From NCBI RefSeq assembly GCF_002909375.1, contig NZ_PPXD01000017.1, positions 1-64,000 on the forward strand: a stretch of 64,000 bases of DNA, in the 5' to 3' direction. This document shows positions 26,547-34,496 of this stretch, piece after piece (within the stretch, counting starts at the first letter, position 1; each line of letters begins with the position of its first letter). This stretch comes from Cryobacterium zongtaii (GTDB lineage Bacteria; Actinomycetota; Actinomycetes; Actinomycetales; Microbacteriaceae). The notes below the pieces were generated by a model, which saw only the letters and a list, made by a program, of their open reading frames with translations, did no database searches and was not told the DNA's origin. The position numbers were made by a program, and so were the translations under genes.

Positions 26547-27200
26547 GTGAACGACGTACTCAACTGGATCCTGGATGCCGTGAGCGCCGTCGACCCCGTC
26601 GTGCGCACCCTTCTCGCGGGTGTGGGGATGCTCCTGGAAACCTCCGTGCTGATCGGGTTGGTCGTTCCCGGCGACACCATCGTGATCGTGGCCAGCACCG
26701 CGGTGGAGGGCCCCGTCGAATACATCGCCCTGGTGTTGGCGGTCATCCTGGGTGCGCTGGTCGGCGAGAGCATCGGCTTTTACCTGGGACGCCGGTTCGG
26801 ACCCTGGATCCGGCGCAGCTGGCTGGGCCGGCGGATCGGGGAGAAGAATTGGGCAGCCGCGGAGCGCTATCTCGCCCGGCGGGGCGGTATCGCCGTGTTC
26901 CTCTCGAGGTTCCTGCCGGTGCTGCACTCTGTCATCCCGCTCACCGTGGGCATGAGCACCATGCGGTACCGCACCTTCCTGACCTGGACCGTGCCCGCCT
27001 GTGTGCTCTGGACCGTGGCCTACGTGAGCGTCGGCGCCGCCGCGGCCGAGGGCTACCGCAGCATCTCAGACCAGTTGCACTTCGCGGGCTACCTCTTCGT
27101 CGGGGCGATCGCGGCGTTCGGTGTCGTCGTGGTCGTCATCAAACGGTGGCTGAAGCGCCGGGAAGCCCGGTTCATGGAGCGAGAGCTTCCCCCGGAGTAG
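26547..27200 (+). CDS. DedA family membrane protein
   Basis: 217 residues of the DedA/VTT family of membrane transporters or scramblases involved in lipid-carrier recycling and envelope homeostasis. Signatures: ETSVLIGLVVPGDTIVIVAS, GALVGESIGFYLGRRFG and FLSRFLPVLHSVIPLTVGMS, where the E/G-R-F-x-P motif lines the re-entrant loop. The substrate is not shown. Its last 29 bp overlap the 3' end of cydC on the other strand. Confidence 0.94.
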   Translation: MNDVLNWILDAVSAVDPVVRTLLAGVGMLLETSVLIGLVVPGDTIVIVASTAVEGPVEYIALVLAVILGALVGESIGFYLGRRFGPWIRRSWLGRRIGEKNWAAAERYLARRGGIAVFLSRFLPVLHSVIPLTVGMSTMRYRTFLTWTVPACVLWTVAYVSVGAAAAEGYRSISDQLHFAGYLFVGAIAAFGVVVVVIKRWLKRREARFMERELPPE

Positions 27201-28926
27201 CCTCCAGCTGGAGTCCGGACCCGGCCGTGAGCGTCAGAGTGCGAGTGATCAGCTCCGCGGGCACCGGCGTGTGGGAGATAAGCAGCACCGCCCGGCCGGC
27301 GCCGGCCGCCGCCGACAGGATGTCCCGCACGAGAGTGTCGCCGAGGCCGGTGTCTACGTTGGCCGTGGGCTCATCGACGATGAGGACCGGGAAGTCGGCC
27401 AGCAGCGCCCTGGCCAGGGCTATCCGCTGGGCCTGGCCGCCGGAGACGAGGGCCCCGCGCTCGCCCACCCGGGCATCCAGGCCGCCGCGCCGGCGAACCC
27501 AGTCGGCGAGCCCGACCCGGGCGAGCACGTCGAGAAGGTCATCGTCGGTGGCGGTGTCCCGCGCGAAGAGCAGGTTCTGCCGTACGGTGTCGTCGAACAG
27601 CCACGGTCGTTGCTCGCACAGTCCCACGATCCGCCGCACCTCGGCCGGAGCCAGGTCTCTGGCTTCGACGCCGTTGACCCCGTATGACCCTGTGTAGTCG
27701 AGGAAACGCACCAAGGTCTGCGCGAGGGTGGTCTTGCCCGCTCCACTGGCCCCCGCCAGGTGGACGCGGTCGCCGGCGTTCAGCCGTAGCGTCACCCCGG
27801 CCAGCGCGGGATGATCTGTTCCCGGCCAGCTGGCTCCCAGCGCCGTGAGCTCAATGAGCGGGTTGCCGGTCTGAGGCACGACGGCGGTCGGCTCTGACGC
27901 CTCTCGCAGGGCGACATCCGACGGGATTTCGGCTGGAATCGTCTCAGGCACCGCCGTCGCCACCCGCTCAGCACTGGAGCGGACCTGGCGCCAGGCACTG
28001 ATGGCCGGGGGGATCATGGCGAAGACCTCGAACACTGCCATGGGAATCAGCACGACCACGGCGAGGGCGGGGCCGGACACGCCGCCGGAGCCCAGGGCCG
28101 GGATTGCCGCAATGAGTGCGAGCACGGTCGCGGCGCCGGCGCACAGTGAGATCACGGCGGCCTGCACTCCGGCTCCCGTTGAGCTGCGGAGCGACGCCGT
28201 CCGCAGCCTGTTCTCCACCGCTGCGAGTTCGGTCAGTCGGGTCTCGAGGGCGCCGAAGGCCGTGAGCACGTCGAGGTTCTCGACGACCTCGAGCACCTCG
28301 TCGGCCAGGGCACCTCGAAGCGGTGCCAGGTCGCGCTCGGAGCGGGCCGACAGCGCCGCTGTCGCGAGGGTGCCGACGATGCCGGCCACGATCAGGCACA
28401 CCATCAGGATGAGCCCCGCCGACGGCAGCACCCACCAGACCCCGACGACGCTGAGAACGGCCACCAGGCCCGAGGTCGCCAGGGGCTGCACTACCCGCAG
28501 CGGCAGGTCCTGCAGGTCGTCGACATCGCGCACCAGCCGGGTCAGTAGGTCGCCCCTCCTGGTGCCGGCGAGTCCGGCGGGGGCCAGGGGCAGCAGACGG
28601 GCGAAGATCCCCAGCCGCAGTTCTCCGAGCTGGCGGAACGCCGCATCGTGGCTGAGCAGTCGCTCCAGATAGCGGAGCGCCGCGCGGGACAGGGCGAACG
28701 CGCGTACACCGACGACGGCCAGGCCGAGGAACAGGATCGGTGGCATTTCGGCGGCGCGGGTGATGAGCCACGCCGAGCAGGCCAGGAGCGCCACCGCACT
28801 GGCGGCGCTGCCCACCCCGGCCGCGAGGCCGGGCAGGCTGCGGCGTGCCGGCGGTTGGGCGAGTCTGAGCACGGACCGGGTCGCCGTGGACACACCCAAT
28901 GCGAAGGGTGAACGTCGATCAGACAT
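27172..28926 (-). CDS. cydC: thiol reductant ABC exporter, CydC subunit
   Basis: 584-residue fused membrane/ATPase half-transporter. Six helices occupy residues 35-300; the nucleotide-binding domain shows Walker A GASGAGKTTLAQTL, signature LVSGGQAQRIALARALL and Walker B FPVLIVDEPTAN. CydDC exports cysteine and glutathione and is required for cytochrome bd assembly. ATG 28926 overlaps the cydD stop by 8 bp. It is the last gene of cydABDC. Confidence 0.95.
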   Translation of the reverse strand: MSDRRSPFALGVSTATRSVLRLAQPPARRSLPGLAAGVGSAASAVALLACSAWLITRAAEMPPILFLGLAVVGVRAFALSRAALRYLERLLSHDAAFRQLGELRLGIFARLLPLAPAGLAGTRRGDLLTRLVRDVDDLQDLPLRVVQPLATSGLVAVLSVVGVWWVLPSAGLILMVCLIVAGIVGTLATAALSARSERDLAPLRGALADEVLEVVENLDVLTAFGALETRLTELAAVENRLRTASLRSSTGAGVQAAVISLCAGAATVLALIAAIPALGSGGVSGPALAVVVLIPMAVFEVFAMIPPAISAWRQVRSSAERVATAVPETIPAEIPSDVALREASEPTAVVPQTGNPLIELTALGASWPGTDHPALAGVTLRLNAGDRVHLAGASGAGKTTLAQTLVRFLDYTGSYGVNGVEARDLAPAEVRRIVGLCEQRPWLFDDTVRQNLLFARDTATDDDLLDVLARVGLADWVRRRGGLDARVGERGALVSGGQAQRIALARALLADFPVLIVDEPTANVDTGLGDTLVRDILSAAAGAGRAVLLISHTPVPAELITRTLTLTAGSGLQLEATPGEALAP

Positions 28927-30589
28927 GGGCGACCTCGTTCAGGTGGACGACGTGGTCGGCGGCGGACACGAAGGCCGGGCGATGACTCACGACGATGACG
29001 ATGCGGCCCTGTCCGGCCAACCGGCGCAGTCCCACGATGAGGGCCTGTTCCGACGTCGTGTCGAGAGCCGAACTCGGCTCGTCGAGCACGAGGACCGGAC
29101 AGTCCAGGGAGATGCATCGGTAGATGGCCCTCGCGGCGGCGACCCGCTGGGATTGACCGCCGGACAGTCCGGCCCCGTTGACACCCAGGCGCAGTGCGGG
29201 ATCCAGATCGCCGGCGCCCGCCCACCGCAGCGCGGTGGTGACCAGGGCATCGTCGGTGACGTCTGCGCCGAGGGCGACGTTGCTCGAGATACTGCCGGAA
29301 AATAGGCCGGCGCGTTGCCCGGACCAGGCGAGCCAATGCCGGCTGTCGTCGGGGAGCACGGCCCTGGCGCCGAGGAACAGCCTGCCGTCGTACGGAATGA
29401 AGCCCTGAAGGGCACCGATCAGGGTGGACTTGCCCACGCCGCTCGGGCCGCTGAGCACACTGAGCTGCCCGGCGGCGAAGTCAGCGCGGAGACTGTCGAT
29501 AATCGTGGCGTCGCCGCGGCGGATGGTCACCGCGTCGAAGAGGAGGGTGTCGACACTGTCGACGTTGTGGGGCGTTGCGGGAACAGTCGCGCCGGCCGTC
29601 CCTTCCGAACCGACCCGGGGCATACGGTCCGGGAGGTCGTCGTTTTCCAGGATGGCGAACACCTCTTCGGCCGCGGCGAGGCCGTCGGCCGCAGCGTGGA
29701 ACTGTGCGCCGACCTGTCGCACCGGCAGGAAGGCTTCCGGCGCCAGCAGCAGCACGAACAGGCCCACACCCAGCAGCAACGACCCGTCGACGAGCCGCAG
29801 TCCGATGGACACGGCGATCAGGGCCACCGAGAGGCTGCCGGCGAGCTCCAGCGCGAATCCGCTGAGGAACGAGACCCGCAGCACCTTCATGGTGCGGCCC
29901 CGGTACTCGTCGGTGAGGTTGCCCAGGCGGGCGGCTTGGCGGCGGTCCCGACCGAAGATCTTCAGGGTGGCCAGGCCGCCGACCACGTCGAGGAAACCCG
30001 CCGACAGCCGTTGCAGGGCATCCCATTGCTGACGTTGCACGACCTGGGTGGCCTGGCCGATCAGGATCATGAACACGGGGATGAGCGGAAGAACGATGAT
30101 CACCGTGATGCCGCTGGCCGGGTCCTGCCAGAGCATCACCAGCACCAGGATCGGCGTGGCGATGGCCGTCAACAGCAGTTGGGGCAGGTACCTCGCGAAG
30201 TAGTTGTCGAGTGCGTCCAATCCGCTGGTGACCACTGTCGCAACCCGGGCGGACTGCTGGCCGGCCAGCCAGTCCGGTCCTCGCTCAGCCAGCCGGCGAA
30301 GAACCGCGGTGCGCAGCTGACTCTTCACGGCTGCGGCCCCCCGGCTGGCGGCGACCTCGAGAAGCCACACCAGTGTGGCGCGCAGGATGACCACGGCGGC
30401 CAGCGCGGCGACGGTGCTGCTGAGCGACTCCAGCGACTCGCCGCTGACCGCGAGCGTGATGCTCTGGCTCAGGAACCAGGCGAACGCGACGATGGTGAGG
30501 GTCTGGGCCAGGCCCAGAACCGCACCGACGAGGAGGAACCACCGGGCTGCGGAGGCATGGGTGAGAAGCCGAGGATCGAGGGGACGCAT
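28919..30589 (-). CDS. cydD: thiol reductant ABC exporter, CydD subunit
   Basis: 556 residues from ATG 30589. Six membrane helices, then an ATPase domain with Walker A GPSGVGKSTLIGAL, signature GLSGGQSQRVAAARAIY and Walker B CPVLVLDEPSSALD. Partner of CydC in a heterodimer. The start lies 5 bp after the cydB stop. Longer in-frame starts exist but fall inside cydB. Confidence 0.95.
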   Translation of the reverse strand: MRPLDPRLLTHASAARWFLLVGAVLGLAQTLTIVAFAWFLSQSITLAVSGESLESLSSTVAALAAVVILRATLVWLLEVAASRGAAAVKSQLRTAVLRRLAERGPDWLAGQQSARVATVVTSGLDALDNYFARYLPQLLLTAIATPILVLVMLWQDPASGITVIIVLPLIPVFMILIGQATQVVQRQQWDALQRLSAGFLDVVGGLATLKIFGRDRRQAARLGNLTDEYRGRTMKVLRVSFLSGFALELAGSLSVALIAVSIGLRLVDGSLLLGVGLFVLLLAPEAFLPVRQVGAQFHAAADGLAAAEEVFAILENDDLPDRMPRVGSEGTAGATVPATPHNVDSVDTLLFDAVTIRRGDATIIDSLRADFAAGQLSVLSGPSGVGKSTLIGALQGFIPYDGRLFLGARAVLPDDSRHWLAWSGQRAGLFSGSISSNVALGADVTDDALVTTALRWAGAGDLDPALRLGVNGAGLSGGQSQRVAAARAIYRCISLDCPVLVLDEPSSALDTTSEQALIVGLRRLAGQGRIVIVVSHRPAFVSAADHVVHLNEVAHV

Positions 30590-30594
30590 CCGTT

Positions 30595-31599
30595 TTAGTG
30601 TACGGCGGCTTCGATGTGCGACCGGCTGATCCGCTTGCGGAACACCCAGTAGGTCCACCCCTGGTAGCCCAGGATCACGGGGGCCGCGATCAGCGCGGTC
30701 CAGCTCATCACCTGCAGCGTGTACGGCGTGGACGAAGCGTTCTCGATGGTCAGGCTGTTGGCCACATCGTTGCTGGCCGGCATCACATCAGGGAACAGCG
30801 ACGCGAACAGGGTCAGCACGGCGAAACCGATGGTGACGGCCATGAGGCCGAACGCGGTGCGCTCGTTGCCGCGCAGGTTGGCCAGGTACGCGGTGATCAG
30901 GGCCACGGCCGCGACGGCGGCGAGGATGCCGGAGGCGAGGGTGCCGTAGGCGAGCGTTGTCCAGACCAGGAAGGTCGCTGCCACGACGATGGTGACCAGC
31001 CCCGACTTGATCGCCAGGGCGCGGGCCCGCACCCGGATGTCGCCCTCGGTCTTGGTGGAGACGAAGATCACGCCGTGCGTGAAGAAGAGCAGCAGCGTGG
31101 TGAGGCCCGCGAGCAACGCGTAGGGGTTGAGCAGATCGAAGAAGCTGCCGATGTAGTTGAAGTTCTCATCCAGCGGCACGCCGCGGACGACGTTGCCGAA
31201 GGCCACACCCCAGAGCAGGGCGGGCACGGCCGAACCGACCACGATCATGGTGTCGAAGGACTTCTTCCACTTCAGCTCGGGCCGCTGGTGCCGGTACTCG
31301 AACGACACGCCCCGGGCGATCAAGGCCAACAGGATGAGCAGCAACGCCAGGTAGAAGCCGCTGAACATCGTGGCGTACCACTCGGGGAACGCGGCGAACA
31401 GCGAGGCGCCGGCCACGATGACCCAGGTCTCGTTGAGGTCCCAGACCGGGCCGATGGTGTTGATCAGGACGCGGCGGTCGGTGTCGTCCTTGCCGAGGAA
31501 CGGCAGGGACATGCCCACCCCGAAGTCGAACCCGTCGAGGACGAAGTAGCCGATGAACATCGCGGCGATGATCCAGAACCACAGGATATTGAGTTCCAT
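30595..31599 (-). CDS. cydB: cytochrome bd ubiquinol oxidase subunit II
   Basis: 334-residue membrane protein with eight to nine helices. The N-terminus (LNILWFWIIAAMFIGYFVLDGFDFGVG) and GPVWDLNETWVIVAGASLFAAFP are classical CydB signatures. With CydA it forms the high-affinity terminal oxidase that reduces oxygen to water using quinol. ATG 31599, 9 bp after cydA. Confidence 0.97.
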   Translation of the reverse strand: MELNILWFWIIAAMFIGYFVLDGFDFGVGMSLPFLGKDDTDRRVLINTIGPVWDLNETWVIVAGASLFAAFPEWYATMFSGFYLALLLILLALIARGVSFEYRHQRPELKWKKSFDTMIVVGSAVPALLWGVAFGNVVRGVPLDENFNYIGSFFDLLNPYALLAGLTTLLLFFTHGVIFVSTKTEGDIRVRARALAIKSGLVTIVVAATFLVWTTLAYGTLASGILAAVAAVALITAYLANLRGNERTAFGLMAVTIGFAVLTLFASLFPDVMPASNDVANSLTIENASSTPYTLQVMSWTALIAAPVILGYQGWTYWVFRKRISRSHIEAAVH

Positions 31600-31608
31600 G
31601 GTGAGCTC

Positions 31609-33018
31609 CTAGTAGACCGTGGTCGTGTGCTTGATTTCGCCGGACACCGGGTCCGGCGCCGGAGCGTCGTCCGGCCCCTTCTGGACCGCCTTGAGGATCA
31701 GGCGGAATTCCACCACGGCGAGGGCGCCGTAGAGCAGGGTGAAGGCGATCAGAGAAATGAGGATCTCGAGCCCGCTGACGTTCGGCGAGACACCGTCTGC
31801 GGTTTTGAGGAGGCCGAAGACCAGCCACGGTTGCCGGCCCATCTCGGTGAAGACCCAGCCCACACTCATGGCCAGCAACGACATCGGGAAGGACCAGATC
31901 GCGATCTTCCACATCCAGGTCTTCGGGCTCCGTCCCTTGCGGGTGAACCAGAGGCCGGCGACGGCGACGAGGATGTGGGCGATGCCGAGTCCGATCATCC
32001 ACCGGAACGACCAGTAGGTGACCCAGATGATCGGCGCGTAGTCGCCGGGACCGTAGAGCTGCACGTACTGCTCCTGGAGGTTGTTGATGCCCTCCACCGT
32101 GCCGTCGAAGGTGTGCGTGGACAGGAACGACAGCAGGTACGGGATGCGCACGGAGAAAAGTTCACTGACACCGTCGGGGGTGCCGAGGGTGAAGATCGAG
32201 AAGGAGGCCTCGGCGCCGGTGGCCGTGTTGTACATGGCCTCGGCCGCGGCCATCTTCATCGGCTGCGCCGCCACCATCGCCAGGCTCAGCTGGTCGCCCA
32301 TCAGGGTGGTGAGGGCTCCGGAGATGACCATCATCCAGAGGCCGAACTTGAGCGCGGGCCGCATGGTCTCGAGGTGTTGATTGCGGGACAGGTGCCAGGC
32401 GGCGACCGAGATGATCAGGCCGGCGGAGACCATGAAGCAGGCGAAGATCGTGTGCGGGAAGGCCGCGAGGGCGATCGGGTTGGTGAGCAGCTCGCCGATG
32501 CTGGTGAGCTCGGCCCGACCCTTTTCCTCGTTGATCTGGTACGCGACAGGATTCTGCATGAAGGCGTTCGCGGCGATGATGAAGTACGCCGACGCGATGC
32601 TGCCCACCGTGGTGAGCCAGATGGTGGCCAGGTGCAGGCCCTTGGGCAGTTTGTCCCAGCCGAAGATCCACAGGCCGATGAAGGTGGCCTCGAGGAAGAA
32701 GGCGGTGATGCCCTCAAAGGCCAAGGGCGCTCCGAAGACGTCGCCGACGAACCGGGAGTAGTCCGACCAGTTCATGCCGAACTGGAACTCCTGCACGATG
32801 CCGGTCACGACGCCCATGGCGAAGTTGATCAGGAAGATCTTGCCGAAGAAGTGGGTCAGTTGGAGGTACATGGCCTTGTTGGTGCGGTACCAGGCGGTCT
32901 GGAAGATCGCCACCGTCGTGACCAGGCCGATGGTCAGTGGTACGAACAGGAAGTGGTAGATCGTCGTCAGGCCGAACTGCCAGCGCGACAGGAGTAACGG
33001 GTCAAGCCACTCGTTCAT
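31609..33018 (-). CDS. cydA: cytochrome bd ubiquinol oxidase subunit I
   Basis: 469-residue heme-bearing subunit. The N-terminal RWQFGLTTIYHFLFVPLTIGL carries the conserved heme-ligand His; FAMGVVTGIVQEFQFGMNWSDY and the Met/Glu helices follow. It is shorter than the 522-residue E. coli protein, consistent with the short-Q-loop type. GGAGGG precedes ATG 33018. The promoter region upstream contains two palindromes shared with the divergent BlaI-type gene, so repression by that protein is likely. Confidence 0.96.
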   Translation of the reverse strand: MNEWLDPLLLSRWQFGLTTIYHFLFVPLTIGLVTTVAIFQTAWYRTNKAMYLQLTHFFGKIFLINFAMGVVTGIVQEFQFGMNWSDYSRFVGDVFGAPLAFEGITAFFLEATFIGLWIFGWDKLPKGLHLATIWLTTVGSIASAYFIIAANAFMQNPVAYQINEEKGRAELTSIGELLTNPIALAAFPHTIFACFMVSAGLIISVAAWHLSRNQHLETMRPALKFGLWMMVISGALTTLMGDQLSLAMVAAQPMKMAAAEAMYNTATGAEASFSIFTLGTPDGVSELFSVRIPYLLSFLSTHTFDGTVEGINNLQEQYVQLYGPGDYAPIIWVTYWSFRWMIGLGIAHILVAVAGLWFTRKGRSPKTWMWKIAIWSFPMSLLAMSVGWVFTEMGRQPWLVFGLLKTADGVSPNVSGLEILISLIAFTLLYGALAVVEFRLILKAVQKGPDDAPAPDPVSGEIKHTTTVY

Positions 33019-33037
33019 TTGCCCTCCAAGACGGTTT

Positions 33038-33054
33038 TTCTACGTGTCGTAGAA
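33038..33054. promoter_or_regulatory. palindromic operator 1 (BlaI-type)
   Basis: TTCTACG-TGT-CGTAGAA: perfect 7-bp arms with a 3-base centre, 20 bp upstream of cydA. The size and dyad fit a winged-helix dimer of the BlaI/MecI/CopY family encoded by the divergent gene. Confidence 0.8.
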
Positions 33055-33062
33055 GACTACTA

Positions 33063-33079
33063 TTCTACGTTCGGTAGAA
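33063..33079. promoter_or_regulatory. palindromic operator 2 (BlaI-type)
   Basis: TTCTACG-TTC-GGTAGAA: same design as operator 1 with one arm mismatch. The two centres are 25 bp apart. It lies 30 bp upstream of the BlaI-type gene and would overlap promoters in both directions. Confidence 0.8.
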
Positions 33080-33096
33080 AGCGCCGTTTCGCTTGG

Positions 33097-33102
33097 TAAA
33101 GT
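33097..33102 (+). promoter_or_regulatory. candidate -10 element (TAAAGT) for the BlaI-type gene, leaderless
   Basis: TAAAGT, six bases, then ATG 33109; no Shine-Dalgarno. Located 17 bp after operator 2. Confidence 0.45.
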
Positions 33103-33108
33103 TTCCTC

Positions 33109-33489
33109 ATGGGAAGTCTGGGCGTGCTCGAGCGAATGTTGATGGACCTGCTCTGGTCTGCCGACGCTCCCCTGACCGCCAACGAACTGCGTGATGCTCT
33201 GCTCGATCCCGCCGCCACCGGCGCGAAGCCCCTCGCAACGACGACGGTGCTCACCGTGCTGTCGCGCTTGGAGAGCAAGGGCTTCGTCACTCGCGACCGC
33301 GATAGCCGGCCGCACGGGTACACGGCAGTGAGCTCCCGGGCACAGCACACCGCCGAGCTCATGCACGAGGTTCTGGGCACGACGAGCGACCGCACGGCGA
33401 CGCTGGCCCGGTTCATCGGCAACGTCAGCCCGCAGGAGGCGCAGACCCTGCGCGCCCTGCTCGAGAGCATCGGCCCGTCGCCGGAGTGA
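33109..33489 (+). CDS. BlaI/MecI/CopY family transcriptional repressor
   Basis: 126 residues. Winged helix: LGVLERMLMDLLWSADAPLT, then a recognition segment KPLATTTVLTVLSRLESKGFV, wing VTRDRDSRPHGYTAV, and a helical dimerisation tail. In BlaI and MecI, cleavage by the partner M56 protease within the dimer arm relieves repression. The partner follows after 53 bp. The gene is divergent from cydABDC and both share two palindromes, making cyd genes and its own operon the obvious targets. This target is inferred, not shown. Confidence 0.93.
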   Translation: MGSLGVLERMLMDLLWSADAPLTANELRDALLDPAATGAKPLATTTVLTVLSRLESKGFVTRDRDSRPHGYTAVSSRAQHTAELMHEVLGTTSDRTATLARFIGNVSPQEAQTLRALLESIGPSPE

Positions 33490-33542
33490 CGATGGCCGTC
33501 ATCCCCGGCACGAGCCTGTCGGCCCTGGCCGGGTAGCGCGCC

Positions 33543-34496
33543 GTGCTCAACACCGCACTGGCCCTGATGGCGCTGGCCGTACTCCTGGCCTGGCCCGTTC
33601 CGATTCTCCTTGCCGGGGCAGACTGGCCGCCTCGCGCGCCCGGCCTGGCCCTCGCCCTGTGGCAGGCGATCGCTCTGGCCGGTGGCATCTCGATGATCGG
33701 CTCGTTGCTGGTCTTCGGCCTGATCCCGTTCGGAGCCACCCCCGTGTCGGCCCTCGGCGCCCTCGCCGTGCACGTCGCGGCCGGCACTCTACCCGCCGGG
33801 GCCACGCTGGCGGGGGTGATGGCGCTCTGCCTGGCGTTGATCCTCGGCACCCACCTGCTGCTCAACCTCAGTGCCACGTTCATCCGCGCCGAGCGGCAGC
33901 GCCGTCGTCACCACACCCTGATCGGACTGCTCAGCGATCCGTTGCCCTTCGATACCGAGGGCACCAGGGTCATCGACCATGCCGCGCCGATCGCGTACTG
34001 CTTGCCCGGGGGCACCAGATCGGCCACGGTGTTGTCCAGAGGTCTGCTGCACCTGCTGGATGCCGACCAGCTGCGTGGCGTCGTGGCGCACGAGCGCGCC
34101 CACTTGCGTCAGCAGCACCACGTGGTATTGCTGGCGTTCAAGTCCTGGCACAGCGCCCTGCCCTGGTTCCCCATCGCCAACCGCGCCGAAAATGCGGTGG
34201 CCCTGCTGGTGGAGATGATGGCCGACGACCAGGCCAGGCAGGCTGTCGACGACCGCACCCTGGCCAGGGCGATCGCGCTCGTGGGCACCGCCCACCTGTC
34301 GGAGGTCTCCGGTACCCAGACGCCGCTCGCGGCCGCGGGCGGCCTCGATGACGTCTCCTCGGCCGACCTGGTCGGGCCGCGGGTGAGCCGTCTGCTGGGC
34401 GAGGTCCCCGGGCTGAGCACGACGGCGCGCACCCTGGTGGTCTGCACGACCGTCGCCCTGCTCCTGCTGCCCCCGGCGCTGCTGCTGACGAGCTGA
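33543..34496 (+). CDS. M56 family membrane metallopeptidase
   Basis: 317 residues, start GTG 33543. Three N-terminal helices (about 3-25, 35-60, 85-110), a cytoplasmic zinc-protease domain with HExxH at 183-187 (VVAHERAHLRQQHHV), and one C-terminal helix (LVVCTTVALLLLPPALLL). Unlike BlaR1 and MecR1 it has no large extracellular penicillin-binding sensor after the last helix, so whatever it senses must act on the membrane part. It probably cleaves or otherwise inactivates the adjacent BlaI-type repressor. Confidence 0.92.
   Translation: MLNTALALMALAVLLAWPVPILLAGADWPPRAPGLALALWQAIALAGGISMIGSLLVFGLIPFGATPVSALGALAVHVAAGTLPAGATLAGVMALCLALILGTHLLLNLSATFIRAERQRRRHHTLIGLLSDPLPFDTEGTRVIDHAAPIAYCLPGGTRSATVLSRGLLHLLDADQLRGVVAHERAHLRQQHHVVLLAFKSWHSALPWFPIANRAENAVALLVEMMADDQARQAVDDRTLARAIALVGTAHLSEVSGTQTPLAAAGGLDDVSSADLVGPRVSRLLGEVPGLSTTARTLVVCTTVALLLLPPALLLTS

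What the first reader, a model, noticed from the sequence alone, without database searches (positions are those of the whole stretch)
33018..34496. BlaI-type repressor and sensorless M56 protease facing cydABDC across two palindromes
Seen: a 126-residue BlaI/MecI/CopY winged helix and a 317-residue M56 protease (HExxH at 183-187) are divergent from cydABDC, and the 90-bp gap contains two 17-bp dyads, TTCTACGTGTCGTAGAA and TTCTACGTTCGGTAGAA, 25 bp apart. Known: in BlaR1/BlaI and MecR1/MecI the M56 protein triggers cleavage of the repressor on beta-lactam binding. Inferred: here the same two-part switch controls the high-affinity oxidase and its thiol exporter, with a membrane or redox signal replacing the antibiotic sensor, since this M56 protein lacks the extracellular penicillin-binding domain.
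Basis: partly seen in the sequence, partly recalled or inferred. Interest (0 to 1): 0.65.

Follow-up and report, generated by a model that had tools for sequence, protein, structure and literature searches.

The report
Protease-repressor switch guarding backup respiratory oxidase
A repressor and a membrane protease, relatives of a well-known antibiotic-resistance switch but without the antibiotic sensor, sit head-to-head with the genes for a backup breathing enzyme, an arrangement and DNA code kept across many actinobacteria, which suggests the switch watches respiration rather than antibiotics.

Summary
In a Cryobacterium-like genome a 126-aa BlaI-family repressor and a 317-aa BlaR1-like protease without sensor domain diverge from cydABDC across 90 bp with two TTCTAC-N5-GTAGAA dyads: the genome's only Penicillinase_R protein and only intact dyads.

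It is conserved. Of 59 close BlaI loci in the family (window included) 58 face cydA, 55 with dyads. So do 75 of 80 named loci from several actinobacterial families (the query came from cyd-facing members). The regulator was kept while cydA was exchanged. In 11 of 11 genomes of a family taken to be Mycobacteriaceae the pair lies elsewhere, yet a cognate dyad precedes cydA, and in the 6 Mycobacterium-like ones the ATP-synthase operon too. Some other dyad-bearing BlaI loci lie beside copper-chaperone or oxidase-assembly genes.

Best reading: a BlaI/M56 proteolytic switch reporting failure of the heme-copper oxidase branch. Its link to cyd is strongly supported; proteolytic release and the signal are inferred. 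M. tuberculosis BlaI binding at cyd and atp promoters is already reported second-hand (PMC5473688), so this is a new variant of a known kind.

The parts
33109..33489 (+). blaI-like repressor gene (126 aa, winged helix, PF03965); recognition-helix position T44; conserved R101-F102-x-G104 at the place of the staphylococcal BlaI cleavage bond (bond recalled)
   Evidence: R101 129/138, F102 138/138, G104 135/138 of BlaI rows
33543..34496 (+). sensorless BlaR1-like membrane metalloprotease (317 aa; long predicted helices 2-24, 33-63, 89-130 and 293-316, taken as the TM helices; HExxH 183-187, E224; invariant C153)
33019..33108 (.). 90-bp divergent control region between cydA and blaI
33038..33054 (.). 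operator dyad 1, TTCTAC-N5-GTAGAA, 19 bases from the cydA start codon
33063..33079 (.). operator dyad 2, TTCTAC-N5-GTAGAA, 29 bases from the blaI start codon
31609..33018 (-). cydA, cytochrome bd oxidase subunit I
   Evidence: PF01654 3.7e-158
30595..31599 (-). cydB, cytochrome bd oxidase subunit II
   Evidence: PF02322 3.6e-107, TIGR00203 over cut-off
28919..30658 (-). cydD, thiol reductant ABC exporter subunit (listed start overlaps cydB; the true start may be the ATG 23 codons in)
   Evidence: TIGR02857 4.5e-159
27172..28926 (-). cydC, thiol reductant ABC exporter subunit
   Evidence: TIGR02868 1.3e-159

Best explanation
A dedicated proteolytic switch for the copper-free backup oxidase. BlaI binds the two dyads and shuts both the cydABDC promoter and its own (shown: operator conservation and position; inferred: binding and repression). 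The M56 protein, a BlaR1 transmembrane-plus-protease body without the penicillin sensor, comes from the gene behind blaI. When electron flow through the heme-copper (aa3) oxidase branch fails (low oxygen, copper shortage, inhibitor), a membrane or redox cue switches the protease on. It then cuts BlaI at the conserved R-F bond between the DNA-binding and dimerisation parts, the dyads empty, and cydABDC plus more blaI and M56 are made; fresh BlaI resets the system once respiration recovers (all inferred, by analogy with BlaR1/BlaI and from the kind of genes controlled). The genome has one heme-copper oxidase subunit I gene, so cyd would be the alternative branch.
For: Only one Penicillinase_R protein (E up to 0.01) and only two intact dyads in the genome, both in this gap. 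58/59 close BlaI loci in the family face cydA, 55/59 with a dyad. 75/80 named loci have blaI facing cydA with the M56 gene; 70/75 of those gaps hold dyads, 129 in all, 40 of 59 neighbour spacings at 21-27 bp. A BlaI-blind scan for the exact 17-mer in 150 family genomes gave 35 sites against 5 for the reversed control; 24 of the 35 lie beside a BlaI gene (my count). Genomes with this BlaI clade all have cydA: 59/59 against 55/91 of the rest, p 5e-10. Regulator kept through an exchange of cydA type. Unlinked operators: a dyad 14-68 bases from the first aligned cydA codon in 11/11 Mycobacteriaceae-like genomes and at the atp operon in 6/6 Mycobacterium-like ones. Some dyad-bearing BlaI loci outside the clade lie by PCuAC, SCO1, cydA or ctaD. 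Protease: top VIA match BlaR1 8exs, Z 11.3, model 5-275 on BlaR1 1-289; zinc-site residues 65/65. Published behaviour fits in part: copper-starved M. tuberculosis delta-sigC raises cyd and rv1303-1305, blaI named in the same passage (PMC7924339 section 8); copper deprivation (in delta-nrp) or Q203 raises cydABDC and ATP synthase (PMC12140626 section 6). One COX1 in the genome.
Against: No binding, cleavage or expression data for this organism. 55 of 114 cydA-bearing family genomes have no BlaI of this clade, so it is not required for cyd control in general. 4 of 59 close loci lack an intact dyad in the 400 bp examined (L035, L042, L097, L098) and 5 of 75 named gaps lack one. In the 11 Mycobacteriaceae-like genomes the number of dyads is no higher than the reversed control, and the pattern was read off their own blaI promoters, so only the cydA and atp positions are independent. 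No sigma-70 promoter match in the gap. Published data that do not fit a joint cyd-atp regulon: amoxicillin-clavulanate raises blaI-blaR and cydAB but lowers atpC, atpG and atpH (PMC5473688 passages); in bc1-aa3 deletion mutants ndh and cydA, not atpE, are named as consistently raised (PMC6823465 passage); qcrABC also rises with copper deprivation and I have no dyad evidence for it. SenX3/RegX3 and CRP are the regulators credited for mycobacterial cyd (PMC7719681 passages). By Foldseek two M48-type peptidases rank just above BlaR1. The signal is inferred only from the genes controlled.
Confidence: 0.68

Rival explanations
1. Copper-specific switch: the pair senses copper shortage (or loss of copper from a membrane site) rather than respiratory failure, and so turns on the copper-free oxidase here and copper-delivery proteins (PCuAC, SCO1) elsewhere.
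For: In dyad-bearing BlaI loci of the family outside the cyd-facing clade the neighbour is PCuAC in 4 of 7 (L108, L113, L124, L130); in two distant actinobacterial loci it is CtaG (L240, no intact dyad) or SCO1 (L243, with dyad). A further dyad lies upstream of PCuAC in L047. Copper starvation raises cyd and atp genes in M. tuberculosis mutants. CopY, a relative, is copper-responsive (recalled).
Against: In M. tuberculosis the QcrB inhibitor Q203 raises cyd and ATP synthase too, with no copper chelator. BlaI has no cysteine in 135/138 rows, so no CopY-type CxC site. ATP synthase and pta targets are not copper genes.
Confidence: 0.25
2. BlaI represses cyd, but the M56 protein is not its protease: BlaI is released by a ligand, or by another protease, and the M56 protein is a neighbouring membrane quality-control enzyme.
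For: Pfam places the window protein in M48 (HtpX-like) rather than M56; Foldseek ranks two M48-type peptidases just above BlaR1 and VIA puts BepA (Z 10.0) and ZMPSTE24 (9.8) close behind it. Among less related family loci some BlaI genes had no M56 match nearby (for example L106, L107, L110). No cleavage data.
Against: M56 gene within 350 bases behind BlaI in 58 of 59 close family loci (L033 has only a piece about 1.3 kb away), and BlaI beside 79 of 80 named M56 genes; zinc-site residues invariant in 65/65; BlaR1 is the top VIA match and covers more of the model (216 aligned) than BepA or ZMPSTE24 4aw6; R-F-x-G at the BlaI cleavage place nearly invariant.
Confidence: 0.15
3. A beta-lactam or cell-wall-damage switch that happens to control cyd as part of antibiotic tolerance.
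For: Family names, and BlaI control of blaC in M. tuberculosis (PMC5473688, PMC12565901, passages); amoxicillin-clavulanate raises blaI-blaR and cydAB there.
Against: No sensor domain: the window protein ends one residue after its last predicted helix, and its 64 homologues match only M48 and M56 plus one DUF6782. The neighbours and most identified unlinked operators are respiratory genes.
Confidence: 0.05

Closest known systems
Mycobacterium tuberculosis BlaI/BlaR (Rv1846c/Rv1845c)
   Same: Only solved repressor matched (2g9w, 9.8e-15). Sensorless BlaR is stated for all mycobacterial species, and BlaI binding at cytochrome bd and ATP synthase promoters is stated (PMC5473688 passages). Mycobacterium-like genomes here carry cognate dyads at blaI, cydA and atp.
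   Different: In the Mycobacterium-like genomes blaI/M56 is not beside cyd and the half-site is TACKAC, not TTCTAC; the literature seen reads it mainly as a beta-lactamase regulator. Here the pair is a local, apparently single-target switch next to cydABDC.
Staphylococcus BlaR1/BlaI and MecR1/MecI
   Same: Repressor family; TM-protease body (8exs Z 11.3); divergent operator region with dyads (recalled for staphylococci).
   Different: No extracellular penicillin-binding domain; target is a respiratory oxidase.
CopY/TcrY copper repressors
   Same: Winged helix of the same superfamily; weak TIGR02698 match (23.6 bits against cut-off 121.95).
   Different: No cysteines; has an M56 partner; target is not copper export.
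ArcBA, Rex, SenX3/RegX3 and CRP control of cyd
   Same: Physiological role: raising the bd oxidase when the main branch fails.
   Different: Unrelated proteins and mechanisms (ArcBA, SenX3/RegX3 and CRP from PMC7719681 passages; Rex recalled).

Membership tests
BlaI/MecI/CopY repressor family (PF03965) | Penicillinase_R winged-helix domain above the curated cut-off | tested here: met
   72 bits, cut-off 22.6, residues 4-119
BlaI/MecI/CopY repressor family (PF03965) | binds inverted repeats with TAC/GTA core arms at its own promoter | tested here: inconclusive
   Operators conserved by sequence and position; position 44 of BlaI goes with base 2 of the half-site in 116 of 116 rows but with only 1-2 independent changes; no binding assay
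BlaI/MecI/CopY repressor family (PF03965) | protease-sensitive bond before a conserved Phe between the DNA-binding and dimerisation parts | tested here: inconclusive
   F102 138/138, R101 129/138; place of the S. aureus bond is recalled; cleavage not testable here
M56 / BlaR1-type membrane protease | PF05569 profile match | tested here: inconclusive
   Window protein: only PF01435 M48; of 65 aligned proteins 47 match PF05569 and 65 match M48
M56 / BlaR1-type membrane protease | HExxH plus downstream Glu in a domain between TM3 and TM4 | tested here: met
   H183, E184, H187, E224 in 65/65; long predicted helices 2-24, 33-63, 89-130, 293-316 read as TM helices
M56 / BlaR1-type membrane protease | fold of the BlaR1 TM and protease part | tested here: inconclusive
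   BlaR1 8exs top by VIA, Z 11.3, rmsd 6.1, 216 aligned, with M48-type BepA Z 10.0 and ZMPSTE24 9.8 behind; Foldseek E 9e-3, probability 1.00, third by E-value
BlaR1/MecR1 beta-lactam receptor | C-terminal extracellular penicillin-binding sensor domain | tested here: not met
   317 aa, last helix 293-316; no transpeptidase-type Pfam hit in the window protein or its 64 aligned homologues
CopY copper repressor | C-terminal CxC metal-binding cysteines | tested here: not met
   No cysteine in the window protein and in 135/138 rows; TIGR02698 far under cut-off
Cytochrome bd operon cydABDC | cydA, cydB, cydD, cydC in order, each matching its family | tested here: met

The most novel reading that the evidence does not exclude
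Sensorless BlaI/M56 pairs are the general actinobacterial sensor of terminal-oxidase failure. The M56 protein itself reads the state of the quinol pool, membrane potential or copper site, with the invariant Cys153 on a strand of the protease domain as a candidate switch residue, and by cutting BlaI it opens either the bypass (cydABDC), the repair (PCuAC, SCO1, CtaG, ctaD) or the energy response (atp, pta), according to lineage. This would be a missing relay by which mycobacteria raise cyd and atp when bc1-aa3 is blocked.
Probability: 0.38. Interest if true: 0.82.

Novelty: new variant of a known kind. Interest (0 to 1): 0.62.

Why it matters
It moves a textbook antibiotic-resistance switch into energy metabolism across actinobacteria, and offers a concrete, testable candidate for a question in mycobacterial bioenergetics: what tells the cell to raise the bd oxidase (and, in some data sets, ATP synthase) when the bc1-aa3 branch is inhibited. 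Organisms such as Cryobacterium, Arthrobacter and Micrococcus, where repressor, protease, operators and cydA lie within about 3 kb, are simple places to test it.

Tried and rejected
Beta-lactam sensing as the input: rejected for lack of a sensor domain. CopY-type metal or thiol sensing by the repressor: rejected, no cysteines. Promoter placement: the sigma-70 scan found nothing in 32950-33200, so operator-promoter overlap could not be judged. Repressor-operator covariation (position 44 against base 2): 105 TTCTAC rows non-aromatic and 11 TACKAC rows Y or H, but only 1-2 independent changes on a poorly resolved tree, so not counted as proof. Dyads against oxidase or copper neighbours in the 31 less related family loci (L102-L132): 7/7 with dyad against 0/24 without (p 4e-7), but the query genes were found by looking at the dyad loci, so the test is biased; as a check, the upstream neighbours (picked by codon composition) of 10 of the 24 dyad-less loci were scanned with all of Pfam and none was an oxidase or copper gene. 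Among loci outside cyd, L203 and L211 (with dyad) and L205 (with a TACKAC dyad) had no respiratory neighbour among those scanned; L097, the one close relative away from cydA, has no dyad. Of the 11 exact dyads in the family that are not beside BlaI, 2 precede atpB, 2 pta and 1 PCuAC; the other 6 make no clear sense: L061 amidase, L072 sigma factor, L215 molybdopterin-binding protein, L213 hydrolase, L059 no family, L066 an ORF of no family. In the 11 Mycobacteriaceae-like genomes, by my count from the list with overlapping hits merged, 26 of 39 sites are at cydA (11), blaI (8) or atp (7); 13 are elsewhere and were tested only with the BlaI, M56, cydA, atp, pta, ctaD, PCuAC, SCO1 and CtaG queries (one PCuAC match about 1 kb from a site in L280). 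The VIA Z of 11.3 to BlaR1 is above the unrelated rows but below what the tool calls safe for helical proteins. Tree: quick method, midpoint root, SH-aLRT 88 for the first cydA type as one side.

'Mycobacterium-like' (g92) rests on one BlaI matching 2g9w at 3.3e-58; that f6 is Mycobacteriaceae is inferred from this.

Rows dropped before counts: 90 of the 94 BlaI hits were examined (left out: the hits in G067, G095, G027 and the second in G121; two of these were fetched later, L217 and L218, and not analysed). Alignment A2 left out 16 of the 80 named loci as close relatives or fragments. The tree dropped rows over 90% alike, aligned pieces under 95 aa and loci with no dyad or both dyad types. 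The 80 named loci are the best 80 of 379 matches to a profile of 32 cyd-facing proteases, so 75/80 is not an unbiased rate, and their M56 gene is there by construction.

Print searches for prior art. Seen as passages only: PMC5473688, PMC12565901, PMC5874750, PMC11561320, PMC8765290, PMC7719681, PMC6823465, PMC8351954, PMC10581053 (the last irrelevant, blaIII). Named sections read: PMC7924339 section 8, PMC12140626 section 6, besides passages. Sala et al. 2009 not held, nothing seen. In these searches I found no paper describing the blaI-M56-cydABDC arrangement; most subscription papers are not in that library.

Full report
What is there. The window lies in a 4.05-Mb Cryobacterium-like genome (nearest named M56 94% identical, Cryobacterium sp. 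N22). cydABDC (33018 down to 27172, minus strand) is divergent from a two-gene pair: a 126-aa BlaI-family repressor (33109-33489) and a 317-aa membrane metalloprotease (33543-34496). The 90-bp gap holds two dyads with perfect 6-bp arms, TTCTAC-N5-GTAGAA, 25 bp start to start, 19 bases from the cydA and 29 from the blaI start codon. They are the only two places in the genome that keep both arms, and this is the only Penicillinase_R protein at E up to 0.01. So this looks like a local, single-target switch. The genome has one heme-copper oxidase subunit I and one ATP synthase A chain; the latter lies on another contig than the dyads.

Conservation in the family. In 150 family genomes 88 have a BlaI relative. 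Of 94 hits I examined 90. The 59 with at least 49% identity (window included) form a clear group: 58 of 59 face cydA divergently, 58 of 59 have the M56 gene directly behind BlaI, and 55 of 59 have one to four intact dyads in the 400 bp upstream. All 59 of these genomes carry cydA (58 adjacent, G097 elsewhere), against 55 of the other 91 (p 5e-10). The reverse does not hold: 55 cydA genomes have no BlaI of this clade. A BlaI-blind scan for the exact 17-mer gave 35 sites in 27 of 150 genomes, against 5 for the reversed control, and 24 of the 35 lie beside a BlaI gene (my count).

Wider conservation. 80 named loci, the best matches to a profile of cyd-facing proteases, span Microbacteriaceae, Micrococcaceae, Brevibacteriaceae, Dietziaceae, Ruaniaceae, Geodermatophilaceae, Catenulisporaceae and others; 79 of 80 have BlaI and 75 of 80 have it facing cydA. 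The 75 gaps hold 129 dyads in 70 gaps; none arise in 500 mononucleotide shuffles. 40 of 59 spacings between neighbouring dyads are 21-27 bp, about two helical turns; the spacer begins with a purine in 98 and ends with a pyrimidine in 117 of 129. The cydA genes belong to distinct types (about 76-97% and 40-46% identical to the window's, plus a 29% type in Catenulispora). On a tree of repressor plus protease the first type sits inside the second (quick tree, midpoint root, SH-aLRT 88), so the regulator appears to have stayed while the oxidase was exchanged.

Operators without synteny. In a survey of 296 phylum genomes 78 had an M56 relative at E up to 1e-10. In family f6, taken to be Mycobacteriaceae because one of its genera has a BlaI matching M. 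tuberculosis BlaI 2g9w at 3.3e-58, the pair is not beside cydA in any of 11 loci. The repeated element in front of their blaI genes reads TACKAC-N5-GTAGTA. Scanning these 11 genomes for it put a dyad 14-68 bases from the first aligned cydA codon, cydA pointing away, in 11 of 11. In all 6 genomes of the Mycobacterium-like genus dyads also lie in front of blaI (where the pattern was read) and upstream of the ATP synthase A-chain gene, with a small ORF in between (ATP-synt_A by Pfam in 6 of 6; in the one locus where it was scanned, L277, the ORF on the other side is a glycosyltransferase). The number of dyads in these genomes is not above the reversed-pattern control; the evidence is their position. 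In one Microbacteriaceae genus extra exact dyads precede atpB (L067, L214) and pta (L065, L216) by about 40 bases. In Amycolatopsis two BlaI genes and an M56 gene are followed by a dyad and ctaD. The less related family BlaI loci that still carry a dyad (7 of 31) sit beside PCuAC copper chaperones (4), cydA (2) or a molybdopterin oxidoreductase with a cytochrome b561-type membrane part (1), while the 24 without a dyad have none of these (biased by how the queries were found, see Tried and rejected; one search is the check). Two distant loci have CtaG (L240) and SCO1 (L243) neighbours.

The proteins. The repressor has no cysteine (135 of 138 rows) and an almost invariant R-F-x-G at 101-104 (F in 138 of 138), where the staphylococcal cleavage bond lies (bond recalled; counts). 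The protease model is confident (pLDDT 92.3) and ends after its last long helix; its top VIA relative is BlaR1, aligned over BlaR1 1-289, that is without the sensor, with M48-type BepA and ZMPSTE24 not far behind. Zinc-site residues, Cys153, R280 and R283 are invariant in 65 of 65. In the family, Cys153 is found in the cyd-linked proteases and close relatives but not in most other M56-like proteins, several of which have a cysteine one position earlier.

Mechanism. Shown: synteny, operators, their sharing between blaI, cydA and, in other lineages, atp and pta. Inferred: BlaI repression, M56 cleavage, and the signal. The set of genes (copper-free oxidase, ATP synthase, copper delivery, cytochrome oxidase) points to failure of the heme-copper oxidase branch. 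Two published M. tuberculosis data sets fit: a copper-starved sigC mutant raises cyd and rv1303-1305, with blaI named in the same passage (PMC7924339 section 8), and copper deprivation of an nrp mutant, or the inhibitor Q203, raises cydABDC and ATP synthase subunits, but also qcrABC (PMC12140626 section 6). Two do not fit a simple joint regulon: amoxicillin-clavulanate raises blaI-blaR and cydAB while lowering ATP synthase genes (PMC5473688 passages), and bc1-aa3 deletion is said to raise ndh and cydA consistently, without atpE being named (PMC6823465 passage). Because Q203 acts without copper chelation, a respiratory signal is preferred to a purely copper one.

Relation to what is known. PMC5473688 (passages) states that M. 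tuberculosis BlaI binds the cytochrome bd and ATP synthase promoters and that mycobacterial BlaR lacks the sensor; PMC12565901 (passages) reports BlaI binding the Rv1303 promoter and lowering its M. smegmatis homologue when overexpressed. A 2020 review (passages of PMC7719681) credits SenX3/RegX3 and CRP for cyd, and the word BlaI does not occur in its held text. New here, as far as my searches go: the dedicated blaI-M56-cydABDC module, its operator grammar, its spread, the oxidase exchange under one regulator, and the wider link to oxidase and copper genes. Verdict: real, well supported as a cyd-linked repressor module; a new variant of a known kind.

Noticed in passing
L067:1501, L214:2001 (genomes G085, G148): Exact BlaI dyads about 45 bases upstream of the ATP synthase A-chain gene in a Microbacteriaceae genus that also has the cyd-linked pair.
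   Followed up: yes
L065:1501, L216:2001 (genomes G148, G001): Exact dyads 36-39 bases upstream of pta (phosphate acetyltransferase), suggesting that overflow metabolism joins the regulon in that genus.
   Followed up: partly
L108, L113, L124, L130 (upstream of BlaI) and L047:1501: BlaI-type dyads facing PCu(A)C copper chaperone genes in genomes of 1.3-2.2 Mb (L047: unlinked site, 1.7-Mb genome); two of them (G059 of L124, G131 of L113) are not among the cydA-bearing genomes.
   Followed up: partly
L206:3214-6848 (Amycolatopsis palatopharyngis): Two BlaI genes in a row with a dyad between them, then the M56 gene, a second dyad and ctaD on the same strand.
   Followed up: partly
L225 (genome G341): blaI, M56 and a cydA-like gene (34% identical) on the same strand, as one apparent operon.
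   Followed up: no
window 33109-33489, codon 44; BlaI relatives: Residue before the TT of the recognition helix is Y or H in the TACKAC-type rows (11 of 11) and not aromatic in the TTCTAC-type rows (105 of 105); too few independent changes to prove co-evolution.
   Followed up: yes
window 33543-34496, codon 153: Invariant cysteine (65 of 65) on a predicted strand (151-154) of the protease domain; function unknown.
   Followed up: partly
L019, L021, L031: Some cyd-linked M56 proteins (277-295 aa) end before the last long helix, so even that helix seems dispensable.
   Followed up: no
L033 (genome G132): A close BlaI relative facing cydA whose M56 match is only a piece about 1.3 kb away; the partner gene may be displaced or broken.
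   Followed up: no
window 26547-27200 (+): Small membrane protein resembling the DedA family (recalled from the sequence, not tested), convergent with the end of cydC.
   Followed up: no
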